The notes under the pieces were generated by a model, which did not search any database, was not told the origin of the DNA, and worked only from the letters and a program-made list of their open reading frames with translations. Shown here in pieces: positions 27,284-59,665 of a DNA stretch of 64,000 nucleotides. The translations under genes and the position numbers were made by a program. Location: contig NW_006921540.1 in the NCBI RefSeq assembly GCF_000340215.1, positions 1,854,377 to 1,918,376 of the forward strand, in the 5' to 3' direction. Source of the DNA: Pseudocercospora fijiensis CIRAD86. Its lineage: Eukaryota > Ascomycota > Dothideomycetes > Mycosphaerellales > Mycosphaerellaceae. Within the stretch, counting starts at the first letter, position 1. Each line of letters starts with the position of its first letter.

Positions 27284-27599
27284 TTTTGTTATAGTTAGCA
27301 TTAGGCACGTGATTTTCCGGAGGCTTAGTTCTGCCGTGCCGTCCTAGCAGTTCTTATAGAATTCAGCTAATCAGAGCTTTAGCTTTTAGAATCCGGGGAA
27401 TTACGTGCTAATCAAATAGGAAATTGAGCCACTATTTAGGACCTGCTATAGTAGTGCGAGCTTCGCTCGCAATTAAGGACTTATTCTATGCCTTCTATAT
27501 ACGGAAGGTAAAGGACTTCTCGGATAGTTACTATATACTAAATACTAGCCTTTAACTATATAGATAACCTAACGTCGCGGGAAAAAGAGATAGTAGCGA

Positions 27600-32782: not shown

Positions 32783-32979
32783 TATAAGAAGGGTTATATT
32801 AGTAGGTAGATAGGGTAGTAGTAGGTATAGGTAGTATTCGATAAGGATCTAGGAGGAGAAGGAGGAAGGCAGGCTAGTTAGCCTAACGCTAAGCGCTAAG
32901 CCCTGCCTAAGGTACTAAGACCCTAGCTTTACTCGGTCTAGTTACATACTAATTACGTATAGCCTCTTTAGCCCTAATA
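32783..32979 (-). repeat. Gypsy 3' LTR
   Basis: It matches the copy at 59464-59660 over its full 197 bp with a few transitions. On the minus strand it starts TATTAGGGC and ends CCTTCTTATA, as expected for TGTTAG...TTACA after RIP. TCTTT precedes it. Confidence 0.9.
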
Positions 32980-34003: not shown

Positions 34004-34445
34004 GCCTCGTATAGACCCCGTAGTGGTTCGGGTTGGTTTGGTTTGGTTTGCTAAGCCGAAACTCTAGTTTGGTTTAGGTTGGTTTGCTAAGCAACTATAT
34101 AAGTAGCTAGTTCGAACCATATAATTTATCGGTTTTTAAGAAGTGTACGAATGTATACGTAGCTTTAAGCAAGCCCTTTGTAAGACTTAGCAGTGTAGCC
34201 GGTAGCGTAGCCGGCATTTTTAGTCCTTAGTACTTATAGAATTTTCGAATCCTACTTAGGCTACGTAGTTGTATAAAGGTACTTATATGACCTCAAATCT
34301 ATAGACAATTAGCTAAGGGCACTAACCAATCAAAAGCATATATATATATATATATAAGGTATTATAGTTTAGTTCGGAAACTATACTCCTTAGGTATAAA
34401 TTTCATCCTTTCGTTTACGGTTCAATTCCCTAACTGCTTAGTAGA

Positions 34446-34945
34446 ATGTCTTTATCTAGATCTAGGTAGAACTTATCGATTTCCCTAGAAGTCCTCCTCC
34501 TTAAGAAGTTTATGCACTTTCCTACCGAACTATTCGATAATATCAAGTACTAGGATAGCTCCTCCCTCGGTATCGGCATAGTATATAAAAGAGCTATAAG
34601 GTAGCTCTATAGAACGTTCCACTAGTTACTCGCTATACTAAGGCCGAATACTAGTTCGTTCCTTAGAACTCTTAGTTATTTAGGAGATATAAAGGGTAGG
34701 GCAGGTAGTGACTTCGTATTGTATAAGGAGGTAGAGGCTGCTATAGAAGAGGCCTTCAACCTATAGAAGATAGTGAAAGATATAGAGGCAGCTATAGGTC
34801 TAGGTACCTAGTTGAATTTTTAGTAGGTAGAGTATAAGGATATTTAGAGGGAGTATTAGGTAGAGTTGCGAAGGTAGGTGTATAATATGCTCTAGAAAAC
34901 AGGGATAGTGCCTATAACTATAACTATTAGGCTCTTCAACCTTCC
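34446..34945 (+). pseudogene. hAT-1 accessory gene, opposite strand
   Basis: A reading frame antisense to the transposase, beginning with an intact ATG and MSLSRSR. It runs about 165 codons with only TAG stops, each plausible as a former Gln. The product would be hydrophilic and helical, with HFPTELFDNIKY and DFVLYKEVEAAIEEAFNL segments. I do not recognise the family. The matching start in hAT-2 (minus strand, 56558) has become ATA. A GCCGGC repeat block follows it at about 35034-35085. Confidence 0.5.
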
Positions 34946-35309
34946 TTATTTTTTCCTATTTTCTTTTTATAAAAATCTAAACTAATACAAATCAACCGGA
35001 ATGTCTATCTTCTTTTAGTTCTTTAAAAAACCTAGCAGCGTAGCTAGTAGCGTGGCCGGCAGCGTAGCCGGTAGCGTAGCCGGCCTTTTTACTCCTTAGT
35101 ACTAACGGGATTTTAGGAGACTTCTATTCCGTACGGCTAATAAAGTATACTATACTATATACATATGCTTAGAGAGTATTTAGAGCGCAGTATATAGCGC
35201 CGTATAATAGCGGCTTATTTCGCATATAGAAAAGCTTATAGATAACACTACGAACATCCTTTCTACTAGAATATCTATCCTATCTAGCACCGTCTCGAAT
35301 ATAGATATT

Positions 35310-35982
35310 CTAGCCTTTTAGAATCTGATCGAGTGCTTTAAAATCCTTGTCTATAATCGTTATACGCTTCGCGTAGATAGCTATAAGGTTAACCGCTAAA
35401 ATAGTATTAGTATAGTCCGAAAAGAGGTAGAAGAGAAATATACATTCGAAGATACGAACTAGGTAGGCTTCTATAGCCTCTTAAAGGGCGCCTATCGCGG
35501 AGGCTTAGAAGCGAAGGTCCGTTCTATAATCCTAGGCAATTTCGCGAACAAGTCGTTAGAAAGGAGTTTTGCGGATTAGGAGCTAAGAACTCTTCTAATA
35601 CTGCCGAATCTTACGGAGGGCTACGGCTAAAGAAGGATTAGTAAAAAGACAGTAAGAATACCGGCTACGCTGCCGGCTACGCTGCCGGCTACGCTGCCGG
35701 CTATAAATAGGACTTACTTCCTAGGCGCTATCGACGCTTCGCACGATTGCTACTAGTAGTAGAAGCGCTAGTTGTCGTTTTGCGTAGAGCCTTACCCGCC
35801 GTTGTCTTACGCGGAGCCTTGCCCGCCGTTGTCTTACGCGGAGCCTTACTCGCGACGCCCTTTCTAGCACCGGAGCTAGCGGCAGCAGTAGTAGCTATCT
35901 TACGTTAATATACTATACTCGTTCTACTATTTCCGATCTTGTTACGACCCGTAGAAGCAGTAGGTCCCTTTTTGCGAGGCAT
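35310..35982 (-). pseudogene. hAT-1 histone H3-like gene (near-canonical core)
   Basis: This copy keeps the ATG (35982), beginning MPRKKGPTASTGRNK. Structure and features are as in the hAT-2 copy at 55063-55708: a basic tail with repeated APRK motifs, an intron with GCCGGC repeats, an H3 core, a second short intron and a TAG at 35310. At the second intron this copy retains the GTATAT donor that copy 2 has lost to RIP. Stops in the core are TAG at Gln positions. Confidence 0.8.
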
Positions 35983-36539
35983 CGTAACTTAGTTAAGTAG
36001 ACTCGCTATTATAAAAGTCGTCGAATTAAGGAAAAAAGTGCGTTACGAAGGTATACGAAGGCGCGCGCGGAGCGAGGGTATTACGGAGGTAGTAGATATA
36101 GAGCGTAGAGGTATAGGTATCGATACGAAGGTTGAATATAGCGGTAGTGTCGCGGTATCGCTAGGCAATAGAGTAAGCTTCGCGCAAGCCTATATTATAG
36201 TAACGTTAGAGCAAGGAAAGAAGGCAGGTACGGCTAAAAAAGGCAGGCACGGCTAAAAAAGGCAGGTACGGCAGACTTTGAAATATAGCCGGCATATATA
36301 GCCGGTATAGTAATAGGCGAAAGCCTCCTTTTAATAAATAGCCGGCGTAATAATAGTATCCTACTATAGTATAGATATTCTTTAGTAATGCCTTTACTAG
36401 CTATAGTAATCTTATAAGTAACCTAGGCCTATTGCTAGTAAATATAAGAAATATCAGGTAGGCTATACTAAACAAGCTAGTTATTTAGCAGGAAAAGGCC
36501 TACTACCGTCTCTATATACCGGCTACGATAGCCGGCTAC

Positions 36540-37590
36540 GAGTGCCGGCTATCGCTCTAAATTCAACTCCGCCCTATCTCGGAGGCTAAGGTACCGAGCG
36601 GAAACCCTATAGCTTATATTTACTCGGTTATCGCGGAGCGCTTATAGGTGAGGTATTAGAAAAGAGTATAAAAAGTACGAGAAGAGTATCCTAGGATATA
36701 GGTCGTAAGTAAATAAGAGTAGCACGCCTAGTTATTTATATAGTACGTTACTCTATACGACTAAGAGCCTATATTATCTCGTGCTTCGCTTATAAGACCT
36801 CGACTCTACTAATATACTATTATTCTCCTACTCGGTCGCTGTCTCAAATCTTCTTCGAGTTGCCGGACTTAGTACGCATCTATAGCTATACAATAGCGCT
36901 ACGTACTATAGAGAATCAACTCCGCCGTATCTCGAAGGCTAAGGTACCGAGCGGAAATCCTATAGCTTATATTTACTCGGTTGTCGTAGAGCGATTATAG
37001 GTAAGGTATTAGAAAAGAGTATAAAAAGTACGATAAGAGCATCCTAGGATATAGGTCGTAAGTGAATAAGAGTAGCACGCCTAGTTATTTATATAGTACG
37101 TTACTCTATACGACTAAGAGCCTATATTATCTTATACTTCGCTTATAAGACCTCGACTCTACTAGTATACTATCGATCTCCTCCTCGGTCGCTAATACGC
37201 TATCTTAATTCTTCTTCGAGTTGCCGGACTTAGTACGTATCTATAGCTATACAATAGCGCTACGCATTATAGAGAATTTCTCGTTAAAGTTTCTCTCTCG
37301 TAGGCTTGCTATCTGCCTCGTAGTATAGAGGATCAAAGTACTAATACTAAAGAATCTCCTTATAGTTAGGATGCTAGGGCTCCTTAGGACCTTTGTATTT
37401 TAGGTCTAAATAGAGACGTATTATAAACGTTCTATCGCCCTTTCGCTTACTACCCGCTAGGTCGCGATATACGAAGAAACTAATCTAAATATAGCTCGTC
37501 TCTATAAGAGCCGGGTAAATATAGAGCGCTAGGTTTCTACTTCGTACCTTAGATTTAGGGACGGCGCGGAGATAAAATCAGAAATATAGC
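36540..37590 (-). pseudogene. hAT-1 accessory gene with internal 361-bp duplication
   Basis: Counterpart of the gene at 53450-54494 in hAT-2; see there for content. The internal duplication is present here too, at about 36552-36912 and 36913-37273, so it predates the split of the two copies. Confidence 0.5.
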
Positions 37591-37643
37591 CGGTACCTAT
37601 AGCCGGCAAAAGGATGCGAAAATAGGCCTCCTCCTAGGTTAAT

Positions 37644-38309
37644 CTAACGACTAAATACAATTTCTAACTAATCCGCTATAAACCGACGCCGAATTTTAGC
37701 TAAAAGCTATATATCTTTATTTTAAAGAGTAACCCGCTTCGTATAGATAGTAAGGAGGTTTAAAAGCTTAAGCTCGGTTACGAGAAATGCCTCCGTAGCT
37801 TCCTAAAGAGTACTAATCGCCTTAGCCGTAAATCGTATACTAGACCGAAAATCTAATATAATTTCTCGGACGAGTCGCTAGAAGGGAGTCTTAGGGATTA
37901 AAAGCTCGGTCCCTCTTTTGTTTTAGAAAAGCCGGATCTAGCGAAGGGTAATAGTACCTAGTTTAAAGCGCCGCTTCTTTATCGTCGAGTCCTGCCTTGT
38001 TCCCTTTCTTTTAATAGAAAGATAACTTTTCTTTGCGATAGTCTTCGTCCGCCTACTCTTTTTAGCCTTCTCCTATCTACCTATAGCCTTCTTATTTTTC
38101 GGTACTATTTTCCGAGGAACCCCCTTCCTTCGTATATACTACGGAGAGCCTTACTCTTCCGATATCTCGTTCTCGCTACGGTCTCCCTATACTTAGCTTA
38201 CTTTACCTTTGCCCTTTAGCCTCTAAAGATATTTATCTGCGCGTTTAAGCGACGAGGGTATATCGGTAGGACCTAGAAAATTAATAAGTATATAATCGTA
38301 GGGAGATAT
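37644..38309 (-). pseudogene. hAT-1 histone H3-like gene (divergent core)
   Basis: Counterpart of 52741-53406. The start codon is ATA here where hAT-2 keeps ATG, a TpG-to-TpA change. The stop at 37644-37646 aligns exactly with copy 2, and the core shows the same pattern of TAG at Gln positions. Confidence 0.78.
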
Positions 38310-38619
38310 TAATGCTTCTTACCTTTTAGAACAAATAGTCTTCTATTAAACCGCCTTATTAGGTTATCGTTAGATTCGAATAAAGGATAGTAGCTTAAGG
38401 AAGGGGAGGTAGCCGGCTTAGGAAGGCCCGAAGAGCCGAATCCTTAAGGTATATTTATCTTTAAGAATATAGGGAAAGGGAAGAAGGAGAGGAAGAGCGA
38501 ATAGAGAATTAGAAATAGTCCGTAGGTAAGCGGGGTCGGTTGCTATAGCAACTAGTCTATTTAGGTCCTAGGAATTCGAAACACATTTCGGATATATACC
38601 GGCTATATACGCCGGCTAT

Positions 38620-41600
38620 ATTACCTTATACGTAAACGCTTCGTCTCCTTAAAGCTACTCTAAGCCTATATACGTTTCCGCTTCTTAACCCGGTATCGCC
38701 TTCTACCTCCGCTCTCCTCCTCTTCGTTATCGCTAATTAGGGTTTCGCTTAGACTAAATTTCGCATTCTCTTCGCGCTCCTAGGTTTCTTCGATCTTAAG
38801 GTTTTCTAATTCCTCGATTAACTCCTTTAGTATAATCTTTAGTAACCTACCTTAGCGATTCTAGTAGAAGAGATAGTATCGGAATACTATAATAGATTTG
38901 AAGGTAATAGGCGAGTATATTCGATTAAAGCGGCCCTAGTAACGAGCGATACTAAAAGACCTCTTATAGCCTATACCTACGCTCGGGATAGCGAGGACGT
39001 CCCGAGCGACCGACGCTATCGTTAGAAACTTAGGCTCTAACCGCTACTATATAGCGAGAATATCGTCTCCGAATTCGTCTAGAAGACCGGTAAGATCTAG
39101 AGATTATTAGCCCTCTTTCCGAGCCTATAGGTTTGTACTTACTCGCGCGCCGATAGAGATCGAACTCTTCCTTATTTACTTTAGTAGTTGCTTCCTCTTC
39201 TGCCTCTACTTCCTACCTACGAAATAGGTATAATATCGGAGCCTTCTAAACCTTCTTTTTCTTTATAGGAGCTGTATTTAGACTAGTTTCTTTCCGACGC
39301 TCGTAGAATATCTTTTCTAGAATAGTCTAGTAATGCTTCGGCTATACCTCGTCCGCCTTCTATTCCGGCCTCTACTAGTATATATCCTTTTCTACCGGGT
39401 TAAGTAAGCACGTAACGCTATAGATATCCCCGAACGAGTTAAAGGTAGTACTATAATATTTATGCAACTTAGTATAGGAGGTGTCTATAGCTTTCGTTAT
39501 AGCTACTTTCTAGGGAACGCTCTTCTTAGCTAGCTTAGCTACGGTTTCCTCGAGCTCGTTAAAGAGCTAGTTATAGTACGTAAAGATAAGGTAGATCGTC
39601 GGTCCTTAGGTTCTTCTAATCGTAGTAGTAACCTTCGCGTAATGCTTACTAATATCGACGAGATACTCTGCTTAGCGCTATTCGGCGGCGGTAAGGCCGA
39701 GCTACTTAATACTCTCGGAACTCTAATAGATCTCGAGAGCGGTACGTAAAGTATATCCCTTCGTAACTATATAGAAAGTCGAATCGAACCGGGTTTTAAC
39801 GTCTTAGGTAAAACGGAGTAGGCGCTAAGGAGGCCGCTTTTGCTATCGCTTATTCTATACGATATTCTAGGCATCGGTTTTAGGGCGCTCGATTAGGTTC
39901 TTTTAAATAGCCTCGAATTGGTTATATCTCTATAAGCTCGAGTTCGTATATATTGCTAGACGACGAAGCTAGAGAAAAAGAGTTAGAACTATACTAGGTT
40001 GCCGGCTATAGGTACCGGCTACGGATAAAAGTTATACCTTATATAAAACGAGAGCGAGGCTCTCTACCTTATCCCGTCTTATTACTATAATAAGTTTCTC
40101 GACTTTCGACTTTGCTTTATCCTTATCTAGGATCTTCTATTAGTCGTCGTTTAATAGTGCAATTTTAAGCGTCTTAAAGAGGGCTCGGATCGCGATTTGA
40201 ACTATATAAGCGAGGTAGGGAAACTTCTATAGAGATACAACTAGCAACGACGTCGGCTCCGATTTAATAGGGCTAGGGCTATTAATAGGCTCCTCTTTAT
40301 CGTTATTATCGTGCGTATTGTCGTGCGTATCCGGAATCGTAGCGAGCTTAATATTCGGAAGATTAAGCTAGATTATAGACCTTATAATCTCCTCTACGCA
40401 CTCGACCCTATCGATACAATTAGTAATTTCAAAGACATATACGAGTAAATTGTATATATAACGCCTTATATAATATTCGATTATTACTAGCGTTATCCGT
40501 AGTAATCGAGATTAGTTTCGTTATTACGCTAACCCTATCTATTGCCGTATAGATAAGCTTCGCTATATCCTTACTAGTATAGGAACCTAGAATTTTAGGG
40601 AATCCGATTATAAGTTCCTAGAGTTTCTAATCCGAATTAATAAAGTATAGTATAATCGAGAGGAAGGAGGCTCTTATAGTCCGGCTTAACTAGCTATCGA
40701 TAGCAATAGCTACTCGGCGAGTATTACGGAGGATCTCCCGAATATCGTCTAACGCAGCCTCTTTATTCTTTTCGAATATAATACGCTAGGTTGTCGCGCC
40801 GAGAAATAGGGGAGGGTAGTTTATAAGATATAGGTATATCTTCTATATAGACTCCCTTTCGTAGAAGTCTTCCGGAAGACCGTTTGTAGCTAGCATTTCG
40901 TTTACTAGTTACTTAAAGTCTTCGGGGGAGAAATCGGTAGCCTTCAATCCTAGAGCTTCCTTAAGCGTAGCCTATAATAATTAGCTAGATCTCTACGGTT
41001 AATTTAGGTAGCCGGAATCTGTAGCCGGCAGCTATAGCCAGTAGCTATAGCCGGCATTTTAGAAGATATACCTCTTTCTAGAACGCTATATCTACATTAA
41101 CTCTCCTCTCTCCTTAAGATTCCCGACACCGTTTAGAATAGAGATAGTTCGTAGGCGATAAGTTCCTATCCCCTAGTTTCGGGTATTTCAAGATTGAACC
41201 GTAGAAGTTGCAGATAATTACTAGTTAACCTTTAAGTCGAGAAGTCGTATAACGGTGCAATGCCCCCTCTATAAAGAACTTCTAGAATATATCCGTTCGC
41301 TCCTTACTCCCCTATCGCATCGAGTACTTCCGGAGTTTATACTCCTTCGAACGTAAGTATAAAGGGAACTATATCTTATAGACCTATTAATTGAACTGCT
41401 CTATATACTCGGGTTTCTAAAGATACGCCTAGCTAGCCTTTTCGAAGATTTCCGGGTTAATACTCGATGTTCTTATATCTCCGAATAACCTTCTACTTAG
41501 ACTCCGTAAAGGTAAGGACTAGGTAGTAGTACCCTATAATGAATTCCTACTACTAGGATTCGGAGAGGATAAATCTAGCCCTAATCGTCGTCTAGGACTC

Positions 41601-41750
41601 GATAGGCTCGAAGGTAAGTATACGACCTCCTCTCGACGTTGTCGCAATCTCGCTCGTATACTAGACTATTTCGACTATCGTCTCGTTATTACCCTTCCTA
41701 GTATAGCGCCTAGTATATATACAATGTCGGTCGGTATGTTTTAAGGTTTC
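38620..41750 (-). pseudogene. hAT-1 transposase, RIP-broken
   Basis: Reverse-complement counterpart of the hAT-2 transposase at about 49290-52420, with the same exon order and GCCGGC-bearing introns (near 40010-40025 and 41010-41060). The coding blocks are recognisable but interrupted by TAG. Confidence 0.75.
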
Positions 41751-41929
41751 GTACGGTAAGGTAAGGACTTAGGAGTAGTAGATATATACTAGTAGCTATA
41801 GAGAAACACCCTTTCTTTTATAGCATCGTATCGTTAGGAATAGCTAGGTAATAAATAGCTAGCTACCTTTTTTTTTGTTTCCTAGCTACCTAACTACTAG
41901 ATTTTTTTTCCTAGCTACCCTAGCTAGCC

Positions 41930-43781
41930 CAACTACTAGAATTTCTTTCCTAGCTACCCTAACTACCTAAATTTTGCCTTCTATACGGCGGCTCTCTCCT
42001 ACTAACGGAACCGAGCTACTATACCTAACGAATCTAAGCTCGTTTTTAGTCTTAATCTATCCTCTTTCGGTATAAGACACTCGACAAGCAAATGCTTAGG
42101 CCGAGTCTAACTACGAAACCTAAGACTAACTAATAGCTCTATTAACCAATCCTAATCCTCGAACTCCTTCCGCTTCTTAGTAAAGACCTTAAAGAGCGCT
42201 TAAGCTTCTTTAGGTGCCTGCGGAGTAGTCGAGATAAAGCCGTATCGCTAAAATAGGTAATCCTTTAGAGGCTTATATAGAGATTTAGAGAATTCTAACG
42301 CTAACCTATCCTACTAGTAGCTTAGATTCCGGATATAAGCCCTCTCTACCTTAGTAAAGATTTTATATAGTAGTAGCACTCTACCTTCGAGAAACGCTTT
42401 CTATTTANNNNNNNNNNNNNNNNNNNNNNNNNNNNNNNNNNNNNNNNNNNNNNNNNNNNNNNNNNNNNNNNNNNNNNNNNNNNNNNNNNNNNNNNNNNNN
42501 NNNNNNNNNNNNNNNNNNNNNNNNNNNNNNNNNNNNNNNNNNNNNNNNNNNNNNNNNNNNNNNNNNNNNNNNNNNNNNNNNNNNNNNNNNNNNNNNNNNN
42601 NNNNNNNNNNNNNNNNNNNNNNNNNNNNNNNNNNNNNNNNNNNNNNNNNNNNNNNNNNNNNNNNNNNNNNNNNNNNNNNNNNNNNNNNNNNNNNNNNNNN
42701 NNNNNNNNNNNNNNNNNNNNNNNNNNNNNNNNNNNNNNNNNNNNNNNNNNNNNNNNNNNNNNNNNNNNNNNNNNNNNNNNNNNNNNNNNNNNNNNNNNNN
42801 NNNNNNNNNNNNNNNNNNNNNNNNNNNNNNNNNNNNNNNNNNNNNNNNNNNNNNNNNNNNNNNNNNNNNNNNNNNNNNNNNNNNNNNNNNNCACTTCTGC
42901 CGTCCCTAGATACTTAGCCCCGATCGCATTAATCGTAAGCTACTTTGCCTTTATAGACGTAAAGGCTTCGCTCTAATACTAATAAAGAAACTTCTACTCT
43001 ATATCGAGGATATAAAGACGACTAGTCTCGATTCCAATCCTTACTAGCTTTTCGTAGTAGCTTTAACTATAATTTTCTAGATTAATAGGACTTATACCTT
43101 AGCCCTTTACTAGTATCTCGTCTCTTTAACTATACTCGATCTACTCCTAGCGCTTATCGTCTATAGCGTTAGGCCCTAAGACTATACCTATTACTAGATC
43201 GACGTATAGTATCTCCTCGCTTTTTTCAGTTCCTTTATTCGTAGCATTAAGCTCTATCGCGGCATCCTAAACTCTAGTATTATTATTCTCGGCTATCTAA
43301 ATATCTCCGTTACTATCGGTCGTATCGATAGAGGTAGCGACTATAGGTCTAAATACTATTAGTTAACGTATTAAAGAAAAATATGCCGGCTATAGCTATC
43401 GGCTACGGCTGCCGGCTATAGCTGCTAGCTACGGCCGCTAGCTAGATTAACTTACGCTACTAGAACTTTACGCTCGAAAACTAGCCGCAATTCTTTCCTC
43501 CTCTTAGCCTTCTCTTAGGTTATCTTCTTATTTTAACCTTTACTTTTTTCTATAGGCGCTAGCTATCGATAGAATGCCTTATTCCGCGCCTTTCTTCTTT
43601 TATCCTTAGCTCTTTTATCCTTATCTATCTTGTCCTTTCTCTCGCGGTCTCGTACGGAATTCTTCTTCGTAGAGTACTCCTCTTTAGTCTTACGCTTTTT
43701 AGTTAGACGCTTAGGCAAAATAAACTCGCGGTCTTTAGTTCTATCTTCTATTTAGCGCGCGGCGCGCTTCTCTCTTGCTAT
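41930..43781 (-). pseudogene. hAT-1 basic accessory gene, interrupted by N run
   Basis: Counterpart of the gene at 47643-49170. It begins ATA-GCA-AGA (former ATG) at 43781 with a long basic N-terminal exon. Most of the second intron, with its GCCGGC repeats, falls in the N run at 42408-42891. An apparent open frame across the Ns is an artefact. Confidence 0.5.
42408..42891. other. Assembly gap (484 N)
   Basis: An undetermined stretch inside hAT-1. The flanking bases align to 48616 and 48542 in the inverted hAT-2 copy, where only 73 bp (48543-48615) lie between them. The missing sequence is therefore probably the GCCGGC-rich intron segment, and the gap is oversized by about 410 bp. Confidence 0.9.
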
Positions 43782-44363
43782 TATAAGGGAAAGAGGCGGG
43801 GGCGTAGCGTATAGTAGTTGTTATCGGTATAGGTATAGAGGAAGAAGTTGAAAGTATAAGAATATCGCGAAGCCCTAATTGTTGCCGCCTACGTAACGTT
43901 ATATAGGTAAGCTTTCGCAACTACGGTAACTACGCCCCGGCAATAGCAACTACGCCCTAGCAACGGCAACTACGCCCTAGCAACGGCAACTACGCCCTAG
44001 CAACGGTAATAAAGCGTAGTAAATACAACCTAGTAACTATTATAGCCGGCAATCGTAGCCGGCAGTCGAATAAGAGTGTCCTTATAGCAAAACCACGCTC
44101 ATGCCCGAGGAGATGGGGCGCCCTAGCAACGGCAAAAGAGCGTAGTAAATGTAACAGAGTTACTATGTATAGCCGGCAATCGTAGCCGGCAGTCGAATAA
44201 GAGTATCCTTATAGTAAAACCAATACAGTCTCTAGTTTAAACTAGGAATCTATATAGTTCGAAAAAACTAAACCGGAACTAGGGAGCTAGTTCGCCGCTA
44301 AGAAACCAAACTATATACGTTTAGTAGTTCGGAAACCGAACTACTGCGGGGTCTAGCCTCGTA

Positions 44364-47044: not shown

Positions 47045-47642
47045 ATCCTTCTTAGACCCCGTAGTAGTTCGGTTTCCGAACTACTAAACGTATATAGTTT
47101 GGTTTCTTAGCGGCGAACTAGCTCCCTAGTTCCGGTTTGGTTTTTTCGAACTATATAGATTCCTAGTTTGAACTAGAGACTGTATTAGTTTTACTATAAG
47201 GACACTCTTATTCGACTGCCGGCTACGATTGCCGGCTATAATAATAACTCTATTACATTTACTACGCTCTTTTGCCGTTGCTAGGGCGTAGTTATCGTTG
47301 CTAGGGCGTAGTTGCCGTTACTAGGGCGTGGTTTTGCTATAAGGACACTCTTATTCGACTACCGGCTACGATTGCCGGCTATAATAGTTACTAGGTTGTA
47401 TTTACTACGCTTTATTACCGTTGCTAGGGCGTAGTTGCCGTTACTAGGGCGTAGTTGCTATTGCTAGGGCGTAGTTACTATTGCCGGGGCGTAGTTGCTA
47501 TAGTTGCGAAAGCTTACCTATATAACGTTACGTAGGCGGCAATAATTAGGGCTTCGCGATATTCTTATACTTTCAACTTCTTCCTCTATACCTATACCGA
47601 TAATAACTACTATACGCTACGCCCCCGCCCCTTTCCTTTATA

Positions 47643-49170
47643 ATAGCAAGAGAGAAGCGCGCCGCGCGCTAAATAGAAGATAGAACTAAAGACCGCGAGT
47701 TTGTTTTACCTAAGCGTCTAACTAAAAAGCGTAAGACTAAAGAGGAGTACTCTACGAAGAAGAATTCCGTACGAGACCGCGAGAGAAAGGACAAGATAGA
47801 TAAGGATAAAAGAGCTAAAGATAAAAGAAGAAAGGCGCGGAATAAGGTATTCTATCGATAGCTAGCGCCTATAGAAAAAAGTGAAGGTTAGAATAAGAAG
47901 ATAACCTAAGAGAAGGTTAAGAGGAGGAAAGAATTACGGCTAGTTTTCGAGCGTAAAGTTCTAGTAGCGTAAGTTAATCTAGCTAGCGGCCGTAGCTAGC
48001 AGCTATAGCTAGTAGCTATAGCCGGCAGCTATAGCCGGTATATTTTTCTTTAATACGTTAACTAATAGCATTTAGACCTATAGCCGCTACCTCTATCGAT
48101 ACGACCGATAGTAACGGAGATATTTAGATAGCCGAGAACAACAATACTAGAGTTTAGGATACCGCGATAGAGCTTAATACTACGAATAAAGGAACTAAAA
48201 AAAGCGAGGAGATACTATACGTCGATCTAGTAATAGGTATAGTCTTAGGGCCTAACGCTATAGACGATAAGCGCTAGGAGTAGATCGAGTATAGTTAAAG
48301 AGACGAGATACTAGTAAAGGGCTAAGGTATAAGTCCTATTAATCTAGAAAATTATAGTTAAAGCTACTACGAAAAGCTAGTAAGGATTAGAATCGAGACT
48401 AGTCGTCTTTATATCCTCGATATAGAGTAGAAGTTTCTTTATTAGTATTAGAGCGAAGCCTTTACGTTTATAAAGGCAAAGTAGCTTGCGATTAATACGA
48501 TCGGGGCTAGGTATCTAGGGACGGCAGAAGTATTACTATAGGAGGAAGGGGTATAGGTAATTATTCTATACTCGGCATATATAGCCGGCATTCGTAGCCG
48601 GCAGATACTAATAGTTAAATAGAAAGCGTTTCTCGAAGGCAGAGTGCTACTACTATATAAAATCTTTACTAAGGTAGAGAGGGCTTATATCCGGAATCTA
48701 AGCTACTAGTAGGATAGGTTAGCGTTAGAATTCTCTAAATCTCTATATAAGCCTCCGAAGGATTACCTATTTCAGCGATACGGCTTTATCTCGACTACTC
48801 CGTAGGTACCCGAAGAAGCTCGAGCGCTCTTTAAGGTCTTTACTAAGAAGCGGAAGGAGTTCGAGGATTAGGATTAGTTAATAGAGCTATTAGTTAGTCT
48901 TAGGTTTCGTAGTTAGACTCGGCCTAAGCATTTGCTTATCGAGTATCTTATACCGAAAGAGGATAGATTAAGACTAAAAACGAGCTTAGATTCGTTAGGT
49001 ATAGTAGCTCGGTTCCGTTAGTAGGAGAGAGCCGCCGTATAGAAGGCAAAATTTAGGTAGTTAGGGTAGCTAGGAAAGAAATTCTAGTAGTTAGGCTAGC
49101 TAGGGTAGCTAGGAAAAAAAAAATCTAGTAGTTAGGTAGCTAGGAAACAAAAAAAAGGTAGCTAGCTATT
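47643..49170 (+). pseudogene. hAT-2 basic accessory gene, three exons
   Basis: The first codon is now ATA (from ATG), followed by a very basic exon rich in Lys, Arg and Glu that ends at 47968. An intron 47969-48075 with a GTAAGT donor and a TTAACTAAT branch point contains GCCGGC repeats and restores phase into PIAATSIDTTDSNGD. A second intron with TACTAAT and GCCGGC repeats (donor 48561 or 48567, end 48622) leads to KAFLEGR and a further 130 codons. The end near 49050-49170 is a repeated LGQL-type stretch. The product would be about 450 residues. I do not recognise the family. The basic N-terminus suggests nucleic-acid or chromatin binding, which is inference only. All internal stops are TAG or TAA at plausible Gln or Trp positions. 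Confidence 0.55.
47969..48075 (+). repeat. Intron with GCCGGC repeats (accessory gene)
   Basis: Donor GTAAGT, branch TTAACTAAT, acceptor ATTTAG. The middle consists of four to five repeats of a unit like AGCTATAGCCGGC with variants. Phase is preserved on removal (2+1 nt). Confidence 0.7.
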
Positions 49171-49952
49171 TACTACCTAGCTGTTCCTAACGATACGATA
49201 CTATAAAAGAAAGGGTGTTTCCCTATAGCTACTAGTATATATCTACTACTCCTAAGTCCTTACCTTACCGTACGAAACCTTAAAACATGCCGACCGACAT
49301 TATATATATACTAGGCGCTATACTAGGAAGGGTAATAACGAGACGATAGTCGAAATAGTCTAGTATACGAGCGAGATTGCGACAACGTCGAGAGGAGGTC
49401 GTATACTTACCTTCGAGCCTATCGAGTCCTAGACGACGATTAGGGCTAGATTTATCCTCTCCGAATCCTAGTAGTAGGAATTTATTATAGGGTACTACTA
49501 CCTAGTCCTTATCTTTACGGAGTCTAAGTAGAAGGTTATTCGGAGATATAAGAACATCGAGTATTAACCCGGAAATCTTCGAAAAGGCTAGCTAGGCGTA
49601 TCTTTAGAAACCCGAGTATATAGAGCAGTTCAATTAATAGGTCTATAAGATATAGTTCCCTTTATACTTACGTTTAAAGGAGTATAAACTCCGGAAGTAC
49701 TCGATACAATAGGGGAGTAAGGAGCGAACGGACACATTCTAGAAGTTCTTTATAGAGGGGGCATTATACTATTATACGACTTCTCGACTTAAAGGTTAAC
49801 TAGTAATTGTCTATAACTTCTACGGTTTAATCTTAAAACACCCGAAACTAGGGGATAGGAACTTATCGCCTACGAACTATCTCTATTCTAAACGGTGTCG
49901 GGAATCTTAAGGAGAGAGGAGAGTTAATATAGATATAGCGTTCTAGAAAGAG

Positions 49953-50078
49953 GTACGTCTTCTAAAATGCCGGCTATAGCTGCCGGCTATAGCTACCGGC
50001 TATAGCTACCGGCTATAGATTCCGGCTACAGATTCCGGCTACCTAAATTAACCGTAGAGGTCTAGCTAATTATTATAG
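49953..50078 (+). repeat. Transposase intron with GCCGGC repeats
   Basis: Donor GTACGT, branch-like GCTAAT and acceptor TTATAG. It contains six spaced CCGGCTA repeats between 49969 and 50041. The exons on both sides join in phase 0. Confidence 0.75.
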
Positions 50079-51012
50079 GCTACGCTTAAGGAAGCTCTAG
50101 GATTAAAGGCTACCGATTTCTCCCCCGAAGACTTCAAGTAACTAGCAAACGAAATACTAGCTATAAACGGTCTTCCGGAAGACTTCTACGAAAGGGAGTC
50201 TATATAGAAGATATATCTATATCTTACAAACTACCCTCCCCTATTTCTCGGCGCGACAACCTAGCGTATTATATTCGAAAAGAACAAAGAGGCTACGTTA
50301 GACGATATTCGGGAGATCCTCCGTAATACTCGCCGAGTAGCTATTACTATCGATAGCTAGTTAAGCCGGACTATAAGAGCCTCCTTCCTCTCGATTATAC
50401 TATACTTTATTAATTCGGATTAGAAACTCTAGGAACTTATAATCGGATTCCCTAAAATTCTAGGTTCCTATACTAGTAAGGATATAGCGAAGCTTGTCTA
50501 TACGGCAATAGATAGGGTTAGCGTAATAACGAAACTGATCTCGATTACTACGGATAACGCTAGTAATAATCGAACATTATATAAGGCGTTGTATATATAA
50601 TTCACTCGCATATATCTTTGAAATTACTAATTATATCGATAGGGTCGAGTACGTAGAGGAGATTACAAGGTCTACAATCTAGCTTAATCTTCCGAATATT
50701 AAGCTCGCTACGATTCCGGATACGTACGACAATACGTACGATAATAACGATAAAGAGGAGCCTATTAATAGCCCTAGCCCTATTAAATCGGAGCCGACGT
50801 CGTTACTAGTTGCATCCCTATAGAAGTTTCCCTACCTCGCTTATATAGTTCAAATCGCGATCCGAGCCCTCTTTAAGACGCTTAAAATTGCACTATTAAA
50901 CGACGACTAATAGAAGATCCTAGATAAGGATAAAGCAAAGTCGAAAGTCGAGAAACTTATTATAGTAATAAGACGGGATAAGGTAGAGAGCCTCGCTCTC
51001 GTTTTATATAAG

Positions 51013-51081
51013 GTATAACTTTTATCCGTAGCCGGTATCTATAGCCGGCAACCTAGTATAGTTCTAACTCTTTTTCTCTAG
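51013..51081 (+). repeat. Transposase intron with GCCGGC repeats
   Basis: Donor GTATAA, branch TTCTAAC, a polypyrimidine tract and acceptor CTCTAG, with two GCCGG repeats. It joins LVLYK to LRRLAIYTNSS in phase 0, upstream of the conserved DVKT-F-STF block. Confidence 0.8.
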
Positions 51082-52740
51082 CTTCGTCGTCTAGCAATAT
51101 ATACGAACTCGAGCTTATAGAGATATAACCGATTCAAGGCTATTTAAAAGAACCTAATTAAGCGCCCTAAAACCGATACCTAGAATATCGTATAGAATAA
51201 GGGATAGCAAAAGCGGCCTCCTTAGCGCCTACTCCGTTTTACCTAAGACGTTAAGACCTAGTTCGATTCGACTTTCTATATAGTTACGAGGGGATATACT
51301 TTACGTACCGCTCTCGAGATCTATTAGAGTTCCGAGGGTATTAAGTAGCTCGGCCTTACCGCCGCCGAATAGCGCTAAGTAGAGTATCTCGTCGATATTA
51401 GTAAGTATTACGCGAAGGTTACTACTACGATTAGAAGAACCCGAGGACCGACGATCTACCTTATCTTTACGTACTATAACTAGCTCTTTAACGAGCTCGA
51501 GGAAACCGTAGCTAAGCTAGCTAAGAAGAGCGTTCCCTAGAAAGTAGCTATAACGAAAGCTATAGATACCTCCTATACTAAGTTGTATAAATATTATAGT
51601 ACTACCTTTAACTCGTTTAGGGATATCTATAGCGTTACGTACTTACTTAACCCGGTAGAAAAGGATATATACTAGTAGAGGCTAGAATAGAAGGCGGACG
51701 AGGTATAGCCGAAGCATTACTAGACTATTCTAGAAAAGATGTTCTATAAGCGTCGGAAAGAAACTAGTCTAAATATAGCTCCTATAAAGAAAAAGAAGGT
51801 TTAGAAGGCTCCGATATTATACCTATTTTATAGGTAGGAAGTAGAGGCAGAAGAGGAAGCAACTACTAAAGTAAATAAAGAAGAGTTCGATCTCTATCGG
51901 CGCGTAAGTAAGTATAAACCCGTAGGCTTAGAAAAAGGGCTAATAATCTCTAGATCTTACCGGTTTTCTAGACGAATTCGGAGACGATATTCTCGCTATA
52001 TAGTAGCGGTTAGAGCCTAAGTTTCTAATAATAGCGTCGGTCGCTCGGGACGTCCTCGCTATCCCGAGCGTAGGTATAGGCTATAAGAGGTCTTTTAGTA
52101 TCGCTCGTTACTAGGGCCGCTTTAATCGAATATACTCGCCTACTACCTTCGAATCTATTATAGTATTCCGATACTATCTCCTCTACTAGAATCGCTAAGG
52201 TAGGTTACTAAAGATTATACTAAAGGAGTTAATCGAGGAATTAGAAAACCTTAAGATCGAAGAAACCTAGGAGCGCGAAGAGAATACGAAATTTAGTCTA
52301 AGCGAAACCCTAATTAGTAATAACGAAGAGGAGGAGGGCGGAGGTAGAAGGCGATACTAGGTCGAGAAGCGGAAACGTATATAGGCTTAGAGTAGCTTTA
52401 AGGAGACGAAGCGTTTACGTATAAGGTAATATAGCCGGCGTATATAGCCGGTATATATCCGAAATGTGTTTCGAATTCCTAGGACCTAAACAGACTAGTT
52501 GCTATAGTAACCGACCCCGCTTATCTACGGACTATTTCTAATTCTCTATTCGCTCTTCCTCTCCTTCTTCCCTTTCCCTATATTCTTAAAGATAAATATA
52601 CCTTAAGGATTCGGCTCTTCGGGCCTTCCTAAGCCGGCTACCTCCCCTTCCTTAAGCTACTATCCTTTATTCGAATCTAACGATAACCTACTAAGGCGGT
52701 TTAATAGAAGACTATTTATTCTAGAAGGTAAGAAGCATTA

Positions 52741-53406
52741 ATGTCTTCTTACGATTATATACTTATTAATTTTCTAGGTCCTACCGATATACCCTCGTCG
52801 CCTAAACGCGTAGATAAATATCTTTAGAGGCTAAAGGGTAAGGGTAAAGCAAGCTAAGTATAGGGAGACCGTAGCGAGAACGAGATATCGGAAGAGTAAG
52901 GCTCTCCGTAGTATATATAAAGGAAGGGGGTTCCTCGGAAAATAGTACCGAAAAATAAGAAGGCTATAGATAGATAGGAGAAGGCTAAAAAGAGTAGGCG
53001 GACGAAGACTATCGCGAAGAAAAGTTATCTTTCTATTAAAAGAAAGGGAATAAGGTAGGACTCGACGATAAAGAAGCGGCGCTTTAAACTAGGTACTATT
53101 ACCCTTCGCTAGATCCGGCTTTTCTAAAACAGAAGAGGGACCGAGCTTTTAATCCCTAAGACTCCCTTCTAGCGACTCGTCCGAGAAATTATATTAGATT
53201 TTCGGTCTAGTATACGATTTACGGCTAAGGCGATTAGTACTCTTTAGGAAGCTACTAAGGCATTTCTCGTAACCGAGCTTAAGCTTTTAAACCTCCTTAC
53301 TATCTATACGAAGCGGGTTACTCTTTAAAATAGGGATATATAGCTTCTAGCTAAAATTCGGCGTCGGTTTATAGCGGATTAGTTAGAAATTGTATTTAGT
53401 CGTTAG
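52741..53406 (+). pseudogene. hAT-2 histone H3-like gene (divergent core)
   Basis: A 221-codon frame from an intact ATG to TAG. The first 117 residues form a basic Lys/Arg/Ser tail. The rest is a histone H3 fold: KLGTITLR-IRLF at the alpha-N helix, GTELLIPKTPF-RLVREI for alpha-1, RFTAKAISTL-EA for alpha-2, LLTIYTKRVTL for loop 2 and NRDI-LL for alpha-3, where each dash is a TAG or TAA stop. The dash positions are mostly Gln in known H3 (PFQRL, LQEA, DIQLA), so the ancestral frame was intact and RIP converted CAG/CAA. Two residues are inserted after the alpha-N helix relative to canonical H3, and the core is diverged, so it may be a variant of CENP-A type or a new class. A single exon. In hAT-1 the start is lost. 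Confidence 0.85.
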
Positions 53407-53449
53407 ATTAACCTAGGAGGAGGCCCATTTTCGCATCCTTTTACCGGCT

Positions 53450-54494
53450 ATAGGTACCGGCTATATTTCTGATTTTATCTCCGCGCCGTCCCTAAATCTA
53501 AGGTACGAAGTAGAAACCTAGCGCTCTATATTTACCCGGCTATTATAGAGACGAGCTATATTTAGATTAGTTTCTTCGCATATCGCGACCTAGCGGGTAG
53601 TAAGCGAAAGGGCGATAGAACGTTTATAATACGTCTCTATTTAGACCTAAAATACAAAGGTCCTAAGGAGCCCTAGCATCCTAACTATAAAGAGATTCTT
53701 TAGTATTAGCACTTTAATCCTCTATACTATAAGGTAGATAGCAAGCCTACGAGAGAGAAACTTTAACGAGAAATTCTCTATAATACGTAGCGCTATTACA
53801 TAGCTATAGATGCGTACTAAGTCCGGCAACTCGAAGAAGAATTAAGATAGCGTATTAGCGACCGAGGAAGAGATCGATAGTATACTAGTAGAGTCGAGGT
53901 CTTATAAGCGAAGCATAAGATAATATAGGCTCTTAGTCGTATAGAGTAACGTACTATATAAATAACTAGGCGTACTACTCTTATTTACTTACGACCTATA
54001 TCCTAGGATACTCTTCTCGTACTTTTTATACTCTTTTCTAATACCTTACCTATAATCGCTCCGCGATAACCGAGTAAATATAAGCTATAGGATTTCCGCT
54101 CGGTACCTTAGCCTTCGAGATACGGCGGAGTTGATTCTCTATAATACGTAGCGCTATTATATAGCTACAGATGCGCACTAAGTCCGGCAACTCGAAGAAG
54201 AATTAAGACAGCGTATTAGCGACCGAGGAGGAGATCGATAGTATACTAGTAGAGTCGAGGTCTTATAAGCGAAGCATAAGATAATATAGGCTCTTAGTCG
54301 TATAGAGTAACGTACTATATAAATAACTAGGCGTACTACTCTTATTTACTTACGACCTATATCCTAGGATACTCTTCTCGTACTTTTTATACTCTTTTCT
54401 AATACCTTACCTATAAGCGCTCCGCGATAACCGAGTAAATATAAGCTATAGGGTTTCCGCTCGGTACCTTAGCCTCTAAGATAGGGCGGAGTTA
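53450..54494 (+). pseudogene. hAT-2 accessory gene with 361-bp tandem duplication
   Basis: An open frame, apart from TAG/TAA stops, encodes ISFFAYRDLAGSKRKGDRT, YLDLKYKGPKEP and HPNYKEIL, and continues as YNT-RYYIAIDAY-VRQLEEEL. From 53773 a 361-bp segment is repeated directly (53773-54133 and 54134-54494). Because 361 is not a multiple of three, the second copy is frame-shifted, so only the first can belong to the protein. I do not recognise the product. The YRDL...KGDR...KYKG pattern faintly recalls fungal DUF3435-type proteins, but I would not rely on this. A GCCGGC block precedes it at 53445-53465 and another follows at about 54505-54530. Confidence 0.5.
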
Positions 54495-55062
54495 AATTTA
54501 GAGCGATAGCCGGCACTCGTAGCCGGCATATAGAGACGGTAGTAGGCCTTTTCCTACTAAATAACTAGCTTGTTTAGTATAGCCTACCTAATATTTCTTA
54601 TATTTGCTAGCAATAGGCCTAGGTTACTTATAAGATTACTATAGCTAGTAAAGGCATTACTAAAGAATATCTATACTATAGTAGGATACTATTATTACGC
54701 CGGCTATTTATTAAAAGGAGGCTTTCGCCTATTACTATGCCGGCTATATATGCCGGCTATATTTCAAAGTCTGCCGTACCTGCCTTTTTTAGCCGTACCT
54801 GCCTTTTTTAGCCGTACCTGCCTTCTTTCCTTGCTCTAACGTTACTATAATATAGGCTTGCGCGAAGCTTACTCTATTGCCTAGCGATACCGCGACACTA
54901 CCGCTATATTTAACCTTCGTATCGATACCTATACCTCTACGCTCTATATTAACTACCTCTATAATACCCTCGCTCCGCGCGCGCCTTTATATATCTTCGT
55001 AACGCACTTTTTTCCTTAATTCGACGACTTTTATAATAGCGAGTCTACTTAACTAAGTTACG

Positions 55063-55708
55063 ACGCCTCGCAAGAAGGGACCTAGTACTTCTACGGGTCG
55101 CAATAAAACCGGAAATAGTAGAACGAGTATAGTATATTAACGTAAGAGGGCTACTACTACTACCGCTAGCTCCGGTACTAGAAAGGGCGTCGCGAGTAAG
55201 GCTCCGCGTAAGACAACGGCGGATAAGGCTCTACGCAAGACGACAACTAGCGCTTCTACTATTAGTAGTAATCGTACGAAGCGTCGATAGCGCCTAGGAA
55301 GTAAGTCCTATTTATAGCCGGTAGCGTAGCCGGTAGCGTAGCCGGTAGCGTAGCCGGCATTCTTACTATCTTTTTACTAATCCTTCTTTAGCCGTAGCCC
55401 TCCGTTAGATTCGGTAGTATTAGAAGAGTTCTAAGCTCCTAATCCGTAAAGCTCCTTTCTAACGACTTATTCGCGAAATTGCCTAGGATTATAGAACGGA
55501 CCTTCGCTTCTAAGCCTCCGCGATAGGCGCCCTTTAAGAGGCTATAGAAGCCTACCTAGTTCGTATCTTCGAATATATGTTTCTCTTCTACCTCTTTTCG
55601 GACTATACTAATACTATTTTAGCGGTTAACCTTATAGCTATCTACGCGAAGCGTATAACGATTATAGACAAGGATTTTAAAGCACTCGATCAGATTCTGA
55701 AAGGCTAG
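55063..55708 (+). pseudogene. hAT-2 histone H3-like gene (near-canonical core)
   Basis: Three exons (55063-55300, 55392-55574, 55623-55708) would encode 168 residues. The tail begins PRKKGPSTSTGRNK and contains SKAPRKTT and a second, similar repeat, like the H3 GKAPRK tail motif. The first intron (GTAAGT, TACTAAT branch, TTTAG, with GCCGGC repeats) splits the Thr codon of GTVALR. The core then runs IR-Y-KSSKLLIRKAPF-RLIREIA-DYRTDLRF-ASAIGAL-EAIEAYLV, with stops mostly at Gln positions of H3. A second 48-bp intron lies before VNLIAIYAKRITI and the end DKDFKALDQILKG. The start codon is ACG in this copy but ATG in hAT-1. The donor of intron 2 is mutated here but intact in hAT-1. Homology to H3 is clear; whether it was an active nucleosome subunit is inference. 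Confidence 0.88.
55301..55391 (+). repeat. H3-like gene intron with GCCGGC repeats
   Basis: A 91-bp intron with donor GTAAGT, branch TTACTAAT and acceptor CTTTAG. Four repeats of GTAGCCGG occupy its middle. Removing it restores the conserved GTVAL sequence of H3, so the intron assignment is strong. Confidence 0.85.
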
Positions 55709-56057
55709 AATGTCTATATTCGAGACGGTACTAGGTAGGATAGATATTCTAGTAGGAAGGATATTCGTAGTATTATCTACAAGCTTTTCTATATACGAAA
55801 TAAGCCGCTATTATACGGCGCTATATACCGCGCTCTAAATACTCTCTAAGCATGTATATATAGTATAGTGTACTTTATTAGCCGTACGGAATAGAAGTCT
55901 TCGAAAATCCCGTTAGTACTAAGGAGTTAAAAGGCCGGCTACGCTGCCGGCTACGCTGCCGGCTACGCTACTAGGTCTTATAAAGAACTAAAAGAAGATA
56001 GACATTCTAGTTAATTTGTATTAGTTTGGATTTTTAGAAAAAGAAAACAAGGAAAAA

Positions 56058-56558
56058 AGGAAGCAGATTGAAGAACCTAATGCTTATAGTTATAGGCATT
56101 ATCCCTGTTCTCTAGACTATATTATATACCTGCTTTCGCAACTCTACCTAATACTCCTGCTAAATATCCTTATACTCTACCTACTAGAAATTCAACTAGG
56201 TACCTAGACCTATAGCTGCCTCTATATCTTTTACTATCTTCTATAGGTTAAAGGACTCCTCTATAGCAGCCTCTACTTCCTTATATAATACGAAGTTACT
56301 ACCTACCCTATCCTTAATATCTGCTAAATAATCTAGAGTTCTAAGGAACGAACTAGCATTCGGCCGTAGTATAGCGAGTAACTAGTAGAACGCCCTATAG
56401 AGCTGCTTTATAGCTGTTTCGTATATAGTGCCGATATCGAGGGAGGAGCTATCCTAGTACTTAATATTAGAGTATAGTTTAGTAGGAAAGTGTATAAACT
56501 TCTTACGGAGAGCTTCGACGGAAATCGATAAGTTCTACCTAGATCTAGATAAAGATAT
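56058..56558 (-). pseudogene. hAT-2 accessory gene, opposite strand
   Basis: Counterpart of 34446-34945 in hAT-1, reading towards the middle of the element. The start is ATA here. The frame has similar length and fewer stops than the other genes, so it was mutated less. Function unknown. Confidence 0.5.
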
Positions 56559-56998
56559 TCTACTAAGCAGTTAGGGAATTGAACTGTAAACGAAAGGATG
56601 AAATTCATACCTAAGAAGTGCAGTTTCCGAACTAAACTATAATGCCTTATATATATGTGTATATGCTTTTGATTAGTTAGTGCCCTTAGCTGATTGTCTA
56701 TAGATTTAAGGTTATATAAGTACCTTTATACAACTACGTAGCCTAAGTAGGATTCGAAAATTCTATAAGTACTAAGGACTAAAAATGCCGGCTACGCTGC
56801 CGGCTATACTACTAAGTCTTATAAAGGGCTTGCTTGAAGCTACGTACATATTCGTATACTTCTTAAAAACCGATAAATTATATAGTTCGAACTAGCTACT
56901 TATATAGGTGCTTAGTAAACCAACCTAAACTAAACTAGAGTTTCGGCTTAGCAAACCAAACCAAACCAACCCGAACTACTGCGGGGTCTAATCCTTCT

Positions 56999-59463: not shown

Positions 59464-59660
59464 TATAAGAAGGGTTATATTAGTAGGTAGATAGGGTAGT
59501 AGTAGGTATAGGTAGTATTCGATAAGGATCTAGGAGGAGAAGGAGGAAGGTAGGCTAGTTAGCCTAACGCTAAGCGCTAAGCCCTACCTAAGGTACTAAG
59601 ACCCTATTTTTACTCGGTCTAGTTATATACTAATTACGTATAGCCTCTTTAGCCCTAATA
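59464..59660 (-). repeat. Gypsy 5' LTR
   Basis: 197 bp, the direct-repeat partner of 32783-32979 with the same ends and the TCTTT duplication after it. It differs from its partner by several CA/TA and TG/TA transitions. Confidence 0.9.
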
Positions 59661-59665
59661 TCTTT

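What the first reader, a model, noticed from the sequence alone, without database searches (positions are those of the whole stretch)
55063..55708. Histone H3 gene with a near-canonical core carried by a hAT transposon
The frame reads as histone H3 through alpha-N (GTVALR-IR-Y-KS), alpha-1 (LLIRKAPF-RLIREIA), alpha-2 (SAIGAL-EAIEAYLV) and loop 2 (NLIAIYAKRITI), and has an APRK-repeat tail. It has introns and lies inside an element with intact hAT ends, in both copies. Stops lie mostly at Gln positions of H3, the result of RIP and not of random decay. A DNA transposon carrying its own nucleosome subunit is to my knowledge unusual. It could package or mark the element's DNA, or interfere with host silencing.
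Basis: partly seen in the sequence, partly recalled or inferred. Interest (0 to 1): 0.93.

Follow-up and report, generated by a model that had tools for sequence, protein, structure and literature searches.

The report
Jumping gene carrying broken histone genes
[quoted passage not shown] the case was published in 2019, and the new detail is that one of the two genes has predicted introns, which argues against the published view that a spliced transcript was picked up.

Summary
The window has two RIP-damaged hAT elements in opposite orientation, each with 8-bp target duplications. Such genes are in hundreds of copies in the genome. The finding is not new: Dhillon et al. 2019 (PMC6710886) describe this family in P. 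fijiensis (784 H3-like copies in 471 hAT elements, RIP-inactivated), and Manning et al. 2013 an H3-bearing hAT in Pyrenophora tritici-repentis. (2) In the copies measured, from three subfamilies, H3-B exons change length only in threes while intron 1 does not, so the H3 genes were probably working element genes before RIP. (3) No tail examined has the ARKS motif, though most H3-A tails have AKKS. Formal selection tests are weak and mixed, and an anti-silencing role is inference. Every element copy scored is broken; intact copies in related fungi could not be sought here.

The parts
47053..56990 (+). El-2: hAT element, 9,938 bp, 20-bp terminal inverted repeats (TAGACCCCGYAGTAGTTCGG, one mismatch between the ends)
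   Evidence: ends and TSD read
47045..47052 (.). left target-site duplication of El-2, ATCCTTCT
56991..56998 (.). right target-site duplication of El-2, ATCCTTCT
34012..44355 (-). El-1: second hAT element of the same family, 10,344 bp including Ns, opposite orientation
34004..34011 (.). target-site duplication of El-1, GCCTCGTA
44356..44363 (.). target-site duplication of El-1, GCCTCGTA
50166..50579 (+). hAT transposase fragment of El-2, with stops
   Evidence: tblastn with a 541-codon open stretch of the L032 hAT frame, 29.8% identity over 141 aa, E 1.2e-8
40486..40893 (-). hAT transposase fragment of El-1, with stops
   Evidence: tblastn, E 1.0e-7
52978..53361 (+). H3-A of El-2: H3-like gene, basic tail plus histone fold, no intron in this stretch, 6 stops
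37689..38072 (-). H3-A of El-1, 5 stops
55063..55300 (+). H3-B of El-2, exon 1 (tail with KAPRKTT-type repeats; start codon not resolved)
55301..55391 (+). H3-B predicted intron 1: GTAAGT ... ACTAAT ... CTTTAG, with 12-bp repeat units
   Evidence: pattern in 301 places genome-wide
55392..55574 (+). H3-B exon 2 (alpha-N, alpha-1, loop 1, alpha-2), 183 nt, 7 stops
55575..55622 (+). H3-B predicted intron 2, 48 nt, donor RIP-damaged in this copy; the published '16-aa insertion'
55623..55708 (+). H3-B exon 3 (loop 2, alpha-3) up to the stop
35337..35624 (-). H3-B core of El-1, predicted intron 2 at 35443-35396, 6 stops

Best explanation
A hAT DNA transposon family carries two diverged H3-like genes in each complete element examined, H3-A and H3-B with its predicted introns, likely taken up from a host H3 gene long ago, probably kept as working element genes, and then spread to hundreds of copies and broken by repeat-induced point mutation. 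Shown: element ends and target duplications, both genes in both window elements and in a third element on C12, copy number, RIP pattern, intron-like stretches with consensus splice signals, H3-B exon lengths kept in frame across three subfamilies. Inferred: that the introns were spliced, that the genes were translated, and that their products entered nucleosomes. Most likely mechanism (inferred, about 1 in 4): H3 variants that lack the ARKS motif around K9 and K27 would be deposited by the host's H3 chaperones and dilute methylatable H3, weakening H3K9/H3K27-based silencing of the element while it was active. In the present genome every element copy scored is broken.
For: Elements and TSDs; third complete element, of another subfamily, TSD GAAGTAAA, G000:C12:614177-622775, same order transposase fragment, H3-A, H3-B. 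H3 similarity; host H3 outscores host CENP-A in 63 of 63 hits over 40 bits (up to 8 of these repeat a place because loci overlap). Introns: intron 2 is 48 nt in 27 of 27 copies (the copies had been chosen by a pattern that allowed other lengths); its 5' part is in 327 places genome-wide, donor GTATGT intact in 52, none for the reversed control pattern; intron 1 pattern in 301 places, none for its control. Frame: exon 1, measured from an anchor to the donor, has six lengths (194, 200, 224, 239, 251, 254), all equal 2 modulo 3, in the 25 of 27 copies measured; exon 2 is 183 nt in 26 of 26 measured; acceptor to stop anchor 82 nt in 25 of 25; intron 1 takes all three remainders (20, 3 and 3 of 26 measured). 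El-2 against the C12 element: the four indels in H3 exons are 6, 21, 3 and 3 nt, those in intron 1 are 13 and 1. Codon positions of transversions in H3-A between these two: 5, 1, 9 (p = 0.04), like the transposase fragment, 4, 1, 9 (p = 0.03). H3-A against H3-B, transversions only: four-fold 6.8 of 20.9, non-degenerate 15.6 of 127, corrected ratio 0.27, bootstrap 0.05-0.98. ARKS is in 0 of 26 H3-A hits that cover the tail and 0 of 25 H3-B tails.
Against: Selection is not proved. Between H3-A subfamilies there are 0.3 transversions at 36 four-fold sites and 2.1 at 140 non-degenerate sites, no synonymous excess. H3-B exons between El-2 and the C12 element show transversions 22, 21, 13 at codon positions 1, 2, 3 (p = 0.27), not the pattern of purifying selection. 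Codon-position contrasts of A against B by all transversions are not significant (p = 0.13), nor are polarised counts. The host-element ratios (0.23-0.26) have intervals that include the value expected for a neutral passenger (about 0.5). The A-B ratio is inflated if A and B were two separate captures; 4 of 12 doubly changed positions share the same residue, which does not settle it. Tail repeat units are multiples of three by nature, and 16 of 26 intron-1 lengths are one and the same, so part of the frame evidence is weak. 24 of 26 H3-A tails have AKKS, close to ARKS, so they might still be modified. No expression data; no intact copy seen.
Confidence: 0.6

Rival explanations
1. Neutral passenger: a host H3 transcript was captured once (transduplication) and multiplied only because the hAT moved; it never worked for the element. 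This is the published reading.
For: Published for P. fijiensis. H3-A has no intron where host H3 has its second one. Between H3-A subfamilies four-fold sites show no transversion excess.
Against: H3-B has two intron-like stretches with consensus splice signals, which a spliced transcript would lack at capture, unless gained later. H3-B exons stay in frame in the copies measured over three subfamilies. Both genes are kept in the C12 element at 79% DNA identity.
Confidence: 0.3
2. H3-B was under diversifying selection (an arms race with host chaperones or silencing factors), while H3-A was conserved.
For: El-2 against the C12 element: 56 transversions in about 507 H3-B exon sites, 1 in 135 intron sites, p = 2e-5. 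B1 against B3 (20 and 2 copies): exon-2 stretch 55394-55545 17.7 of 152 sites, 5' flank 5.8 of 210, 3' flank 5.3 of 172, intron 2 0.5 of 48.
Against: Third codon positions are raised too, which points as well to exchange with a more diverged copy; in B1 against B2 (20 and 5 copies) the 3' flank (21.9 of 142) is as diverged as the exon stretch (17.6 of 152). The introns may be constrained and then are no neutral yardstick. Changes come in runs.
Confidence: 0.15
3. The H3-like genes derive from, or compete with, CENP-A and help the element exploit centromeres.
For: The fast stretch of H3-B covers loop 1, the region that evolves fast in CENP-A of other organisms (recalled).
Against: Host H3 scores above host CENP-A in 63 of 63 hits over 40 bits; neither gene has the longer loop 1 seen in host CENP-A (L033).
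Confidence: 0.03
4. Artefact: host H3 duplicated next to a transposon, or an assembly error.
For: None found.
Against: Same arrangement in two elements with different TSDs in the window, in the C12 element, and H3-like stretches of this family in hundreds of places.
Confidence: 0.01

Closest known systems
H3-carrying hAT family of Pseudocercospora fijiensis (Dhillon et al. 2019, PMC6710886; parts 1-5 of 7 of the text read)
   Same: Genome about 74 Mb; full-length elements 9.5-9.9 kb; 20-bp TIR, 8-bp TSD; one or two H3-like copies per element, the second with a 16-aa insertion; CpA to TpA RIP; one intact H3 gene on scaffold 6 (here contig C6). In all likelihood the same family.
   Different: The paper infers capture of an intronless transcript and reads the 48 nt as an insertion mutation; here it reads as an intron, and H3-B has another one beside the position of the host's second intron.
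H3L-bearing hAT of Pyrenophora tritici-repentis (Manning et al. 2013, PMC3538342; passages read)
   Same: hAT element with an H3-like gene between its TIRs, 26 H3L genes.
   Different: About 5.6 and 2.3 kb elements, one H3L, nearly unmutated, ESTs reported. Dhillon et al. found no similarity between the hAT sequences. Its H3L could not be compared here.
Pack-MULE type gene capture in plants (recalled, and named in the papers above)
   Same: Host gene pieces inside a DNA transposon.
   Different: Here near-complete genes, in two diverged versions, beside the transposase, in each of three complete elements examined.

Membership tests
hAT superfamily | 8-bp target-site duplication | tested here: met
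   three complete elements: GCCTCGTA, ATCCTTCT, GAAGTAAA
hAT superfamily | short terminal inverted repeats | tested here: met
   TAGACCCCGYAGTRGTTCGG at both ends of El-1 and El-2
hAT superfamily | transposase related to hAT transposases | tested here: met
   141 aa at 29.8% identity to an open stretch of the L032 frame, which has a PF05699 match, E 1.2e-8; weak and fragmentary
hAT superfamily | recognisable DUF659 and hAT dimerisation (PF05699) domains | tested here: inconclusive
   21 and 47 genome matches, none inside the window; RIP damage may hide them. Dhillon et al. report DUF659 but no dimerisation domain
Histone H3 | H3 histone fold (alpha-N to alpha-3) | tested here: met
   tblastn E 7.8e-24 to 3.2e-22 for the window copies; PF00125 for genome copies; single open pieces alone stay below the Pfam cut-off
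Histone H3 | closer to H3 than to CENP-A, no longer loop 1 | tested here: met
   63 of 63 hits over 40 bits; alignment
Canonical histone H3 | conserved tail with ARTKQTARKS / AARKS | tested here: not met
   ARKS in 0 of 26 H3-A hits covering the tail and 0 of 25 H3-B tails; 24 of 26 H3-A have AKKS; so 'H3-like variant', not canonical H3
Dhillon 2019 hAT-H3 family | two H3-like copies per element, 16-aa insertion in the second, RIP, about 9.5-9.9 kb | tested here: met
   El-2 is 9,938 bp, El-1 longer (10,344 bp with Ns)
Transduplicated transcript (intronless capture) | no introns in the captured gene | tested here: not met
   H3-B: two intron-like stretches; splicing itself not tested. H3-A: none in 52978-53361

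The most novel reading that the evidence does not exclude
A DNA transposon that owned its own pair of nucleosome subunits: a conserved H3-A and a fast-changing, intron-bearing H3-B, both without the ARKS methylation motif, kept through several subfamilies as anti-silencing histones against the heterochromatin and RIP machinery that finally killed the family.
Probability: 0.25. Interest if true: 0.85.

Novelty: already known. Interest (0 to 1): 0.42.

Why it matters
The family is in print as a case of gene capture. If H3-B had real introns and both genes stayed in frame while subfamilies diverged, the capture is better read as a transposon that kept histone genes for its own use, which would make 'do transposons fight silencing with their own histones?' testable in relatives with intact copies such as Pyrenophora tritici-repentis. 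It would also correct a published detail (the 16-aa insertion).

Tried and rejected
CENP-A origin: disfavoured. Purifying selection on H3-A between subfamilies by four-fold sites: too few changes. Codon-position contrasts and polarised purine/pyrimidine states: mostly not significant. Pfam scan of single open pieces: one of four pieces touched PF00125, E 0.021, below the cut-off. Database search with open pieces: the longest is 59 aa, too short to reach full-length relatives, so not run. Naming the host by its CENP-A protein: named Mycosphaerellaceae entries among the 120 rows shown (Septoria, Sphaerulina, Cercospora) reach 76-85% identity, and I saw no P. fijiensis name (names are cut short there). 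The host name rests on genome size 73.94 Mb, largest contig 11.88 Mb against the published 11.8 Mb and H3 on contig 6. Papers: I did not find the intron reading in print; that rests on parts 1-5 of 7 of Dhillon 2019, passages of PMC13041039, which repeats the capture account, and listings.

Full report
Observation. The frame at 55063-55708 is H3-like. tblastn with the genome's own intact H3 (L001) finds four strong hits in the 64-kb window, E between 7.8e-24 and 3.2e-22: the reported gene (H3-B) in both elements, and a second H3-like gene (H3-A) about 2 kb upstream of it, also in both. At 71 positions that are not stops, H3-B matches host H3 at 52 and H3-A at 41; A and B match each other at 54%. 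In the loci held, host H3 outscores host CENP-A in 63 of 63 hits over 40 bits (up to 8 repeat a place because loci overlap).

Element. The arms of the large inverted repeat are two separate insertions: El-1 34012-44355 with TSD GCCTCGTA and El-2 47053-56990 with TSD ATCCTTCT. A fragment with 29.8% identity to a 541-codon open stretch of a hAT transposase frame elsewhere in the genome (L032) lies at 50166-50579 and 40893-40486. Pfam DUF659 and Dimer_Tnp_hAT matches exist elsewhere in the genome (21 and 47) but none in the window. A diverged element on C12 (614177-622775, TSD GAAGTAAA, 79% identical over 8,451 aligned columns) has the transposase fragment, H3-A and H3-B in the same order.

Damage. 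CpA and TpG are nearly gone in both elements (11-13 and 10-13 per thousand, against 71 and 75 in window 1-26000). El-1 and El-2 differ by 364 transitions and 44 transversions in 9,882 aligned columns, 83 of them with N. Stops sit at host Gln positions in 118 of 157 (33 H3-A hits) and 102 of 129 (22 H3-B hits); none is TGA. In one search, 148 of the 150 scored PF00125 matches contain stops; the two without are the host H3 (C6) and host CENP-A (C5, L033). So no intact element copy was seen among those scored; 772 candidates had passed the first look.

Already published. Dhillon et al. 2019 (PMC6710886; abstract and parts 1-5 of 7 read) describe this family in P. fijiensis: 784 H3-like copies in 471 hAT elements, one or two per element, a 16-aa insertion in the second, 20-bp TIR, 8-bp TSD, RIP, intact H3 on scaffold 6, and a similar event in five related species. 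A 2026 paper repeats that account (passages). Manning et al. 2013 (passages) report an H3L-bearing hAT in P. tritici-repentis with ESTs. The genome here is 73.94 Mb with a largest contig of 11.88 Mb and host H3 on contig 6, which fits P. fijiensis (published: about 74 Mb, largest scaffold 11.8 Mb); the name is an inference.

Introns. H3-B has an intron-like stretch at 55301-55391 (GTAAGT, ACTAAT, CTTTAG) and another at 55575-55622, exactly 48 nt, which matches the 16-aa insertion of the paper. The second is 48 nt in 27 of 27 copies chosen by a pattern that allowed other lengths. Genome-wide its 5' part is found in 327 places, 52 of them with an intact GTATGT donor, and no match for the reversed control pattern; the rest carry RIP-type changes in the donor. 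The first intron pattern is found in 301 places, control none. Taking both out leaves 507 coding bases, a multiple of three, and H3 similarity continues across both joints. By my reading of the sequence the first intron lies one codon from the host's second intron, both in phase 1. H3-A runs through both places without an intron. The published inference that an intronless transcript was captured therefore does not fit H3-B, unless both introns were gained later. Splicing itself was not tested.

Were they working genes? For: exon 1 takes six lengths in the 25 of 27 copies measured, all in the same frame; exon 2 is 183 nt in 26 of 26 measured and the stretch from the second acceptor to the stop anchor 82 nt in 25 of 25; intron 1 takes all three remainders (20, 3 and 3 of 26). 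Indels between El-2 and the C12 element are 6, 21, 3, 3 nt in H3 exons and 13, 1 nt in intron 1. Transversions, which RIP does not make, fall 5, 1, 9 on the codon positions of H3-A (p = 0.04) and 4, 1, 9 on those of the transposase fragment (p = 0.03), and are rarer at non-degenerate than at four-fold sites between H3-A and H3-B (ratio 0.27, bootstrap 0.05-0.98). Against: between H3-A subfamilies four-fold sites show no excess (0.3 of 36 against 2.1 of 140); A against B by all transversions gives p = 0.13; polarised counts are not significant; host-element ratios (0.23-0.26) have wide intervals; H3-B exons do not show the codon-position pattern of purifying selection (22, 21, 13). H3-B exons carry far more transversions than its introns (56 of about 507 against 1 of 135, p = 2e-5), which could mean diversifying selection, exchange of the exon, or constrained introns; third positions are raised as well. 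I take the frame evidence as the stronger and call it probable, not shown, that these were element genes.

Function. No tail examined has the ARKS motif of H3 K9 and K27 (0 of 26 H3-A hits that cover the tail, 0 of 25 H3-B tails), though 24 of the 26 H3-A tails have AKKS. An H3 variant without ARKS would be a poorer substrate for H3K9 and H3K27 methyltransferases (general knowledge, recalled), so an anti-silencing role is the mechanism I commit to, at about one in four. Nothing here shows expression, deposition or effect.

Verdict. The additions are the two-gene anatomy in the window, the intron reading and the in-frame record across subfamilies.

Noticed in passing
34012-44355 and 47053-56990: The two elements sit in opposite orientation 2.7 kb apart, with RIP-damaged sequence between them, giving inverted arms of about 10 kb.
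   Followed up: partly
53773-54433 (El-2) and 36563-37277 (El-1): A tandem duplication (spacing about 353-361 bp) between H3-A and H3-B in both elements; this stretch aligns poorly with the C12 subfamily.
   Followed up: no
55301-55391: Predicted intron 1 holds a variable number of 12-bp AGCCGGTAGCGT-type units; similar GCCGGC-rich units occur elsewhere in the element.
   Followed up: no
55063-55300 and L047, L050, L052: The H3-B tail differs between subfamilies by whole blocks of KAPRKTTAGK-type repeats.
   Followed up: partly
55394-55545 against L045, L047, L048, L051: The alpha-1/loop-1/alpha-2 stretch of H3-B differs strongly between subfamilies while intron 2 beside it hardly changes.
   Followed up: partly
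13073-13331 and 26862-27294: Minisatellite arrays unrelated to the finding.
   Followed up: no
32783-32980 and 59464-59661: A 198-bp repeat, 97% identical, partly matching a frame of L031; another repeat family flanking the elements.
   Followed up: no
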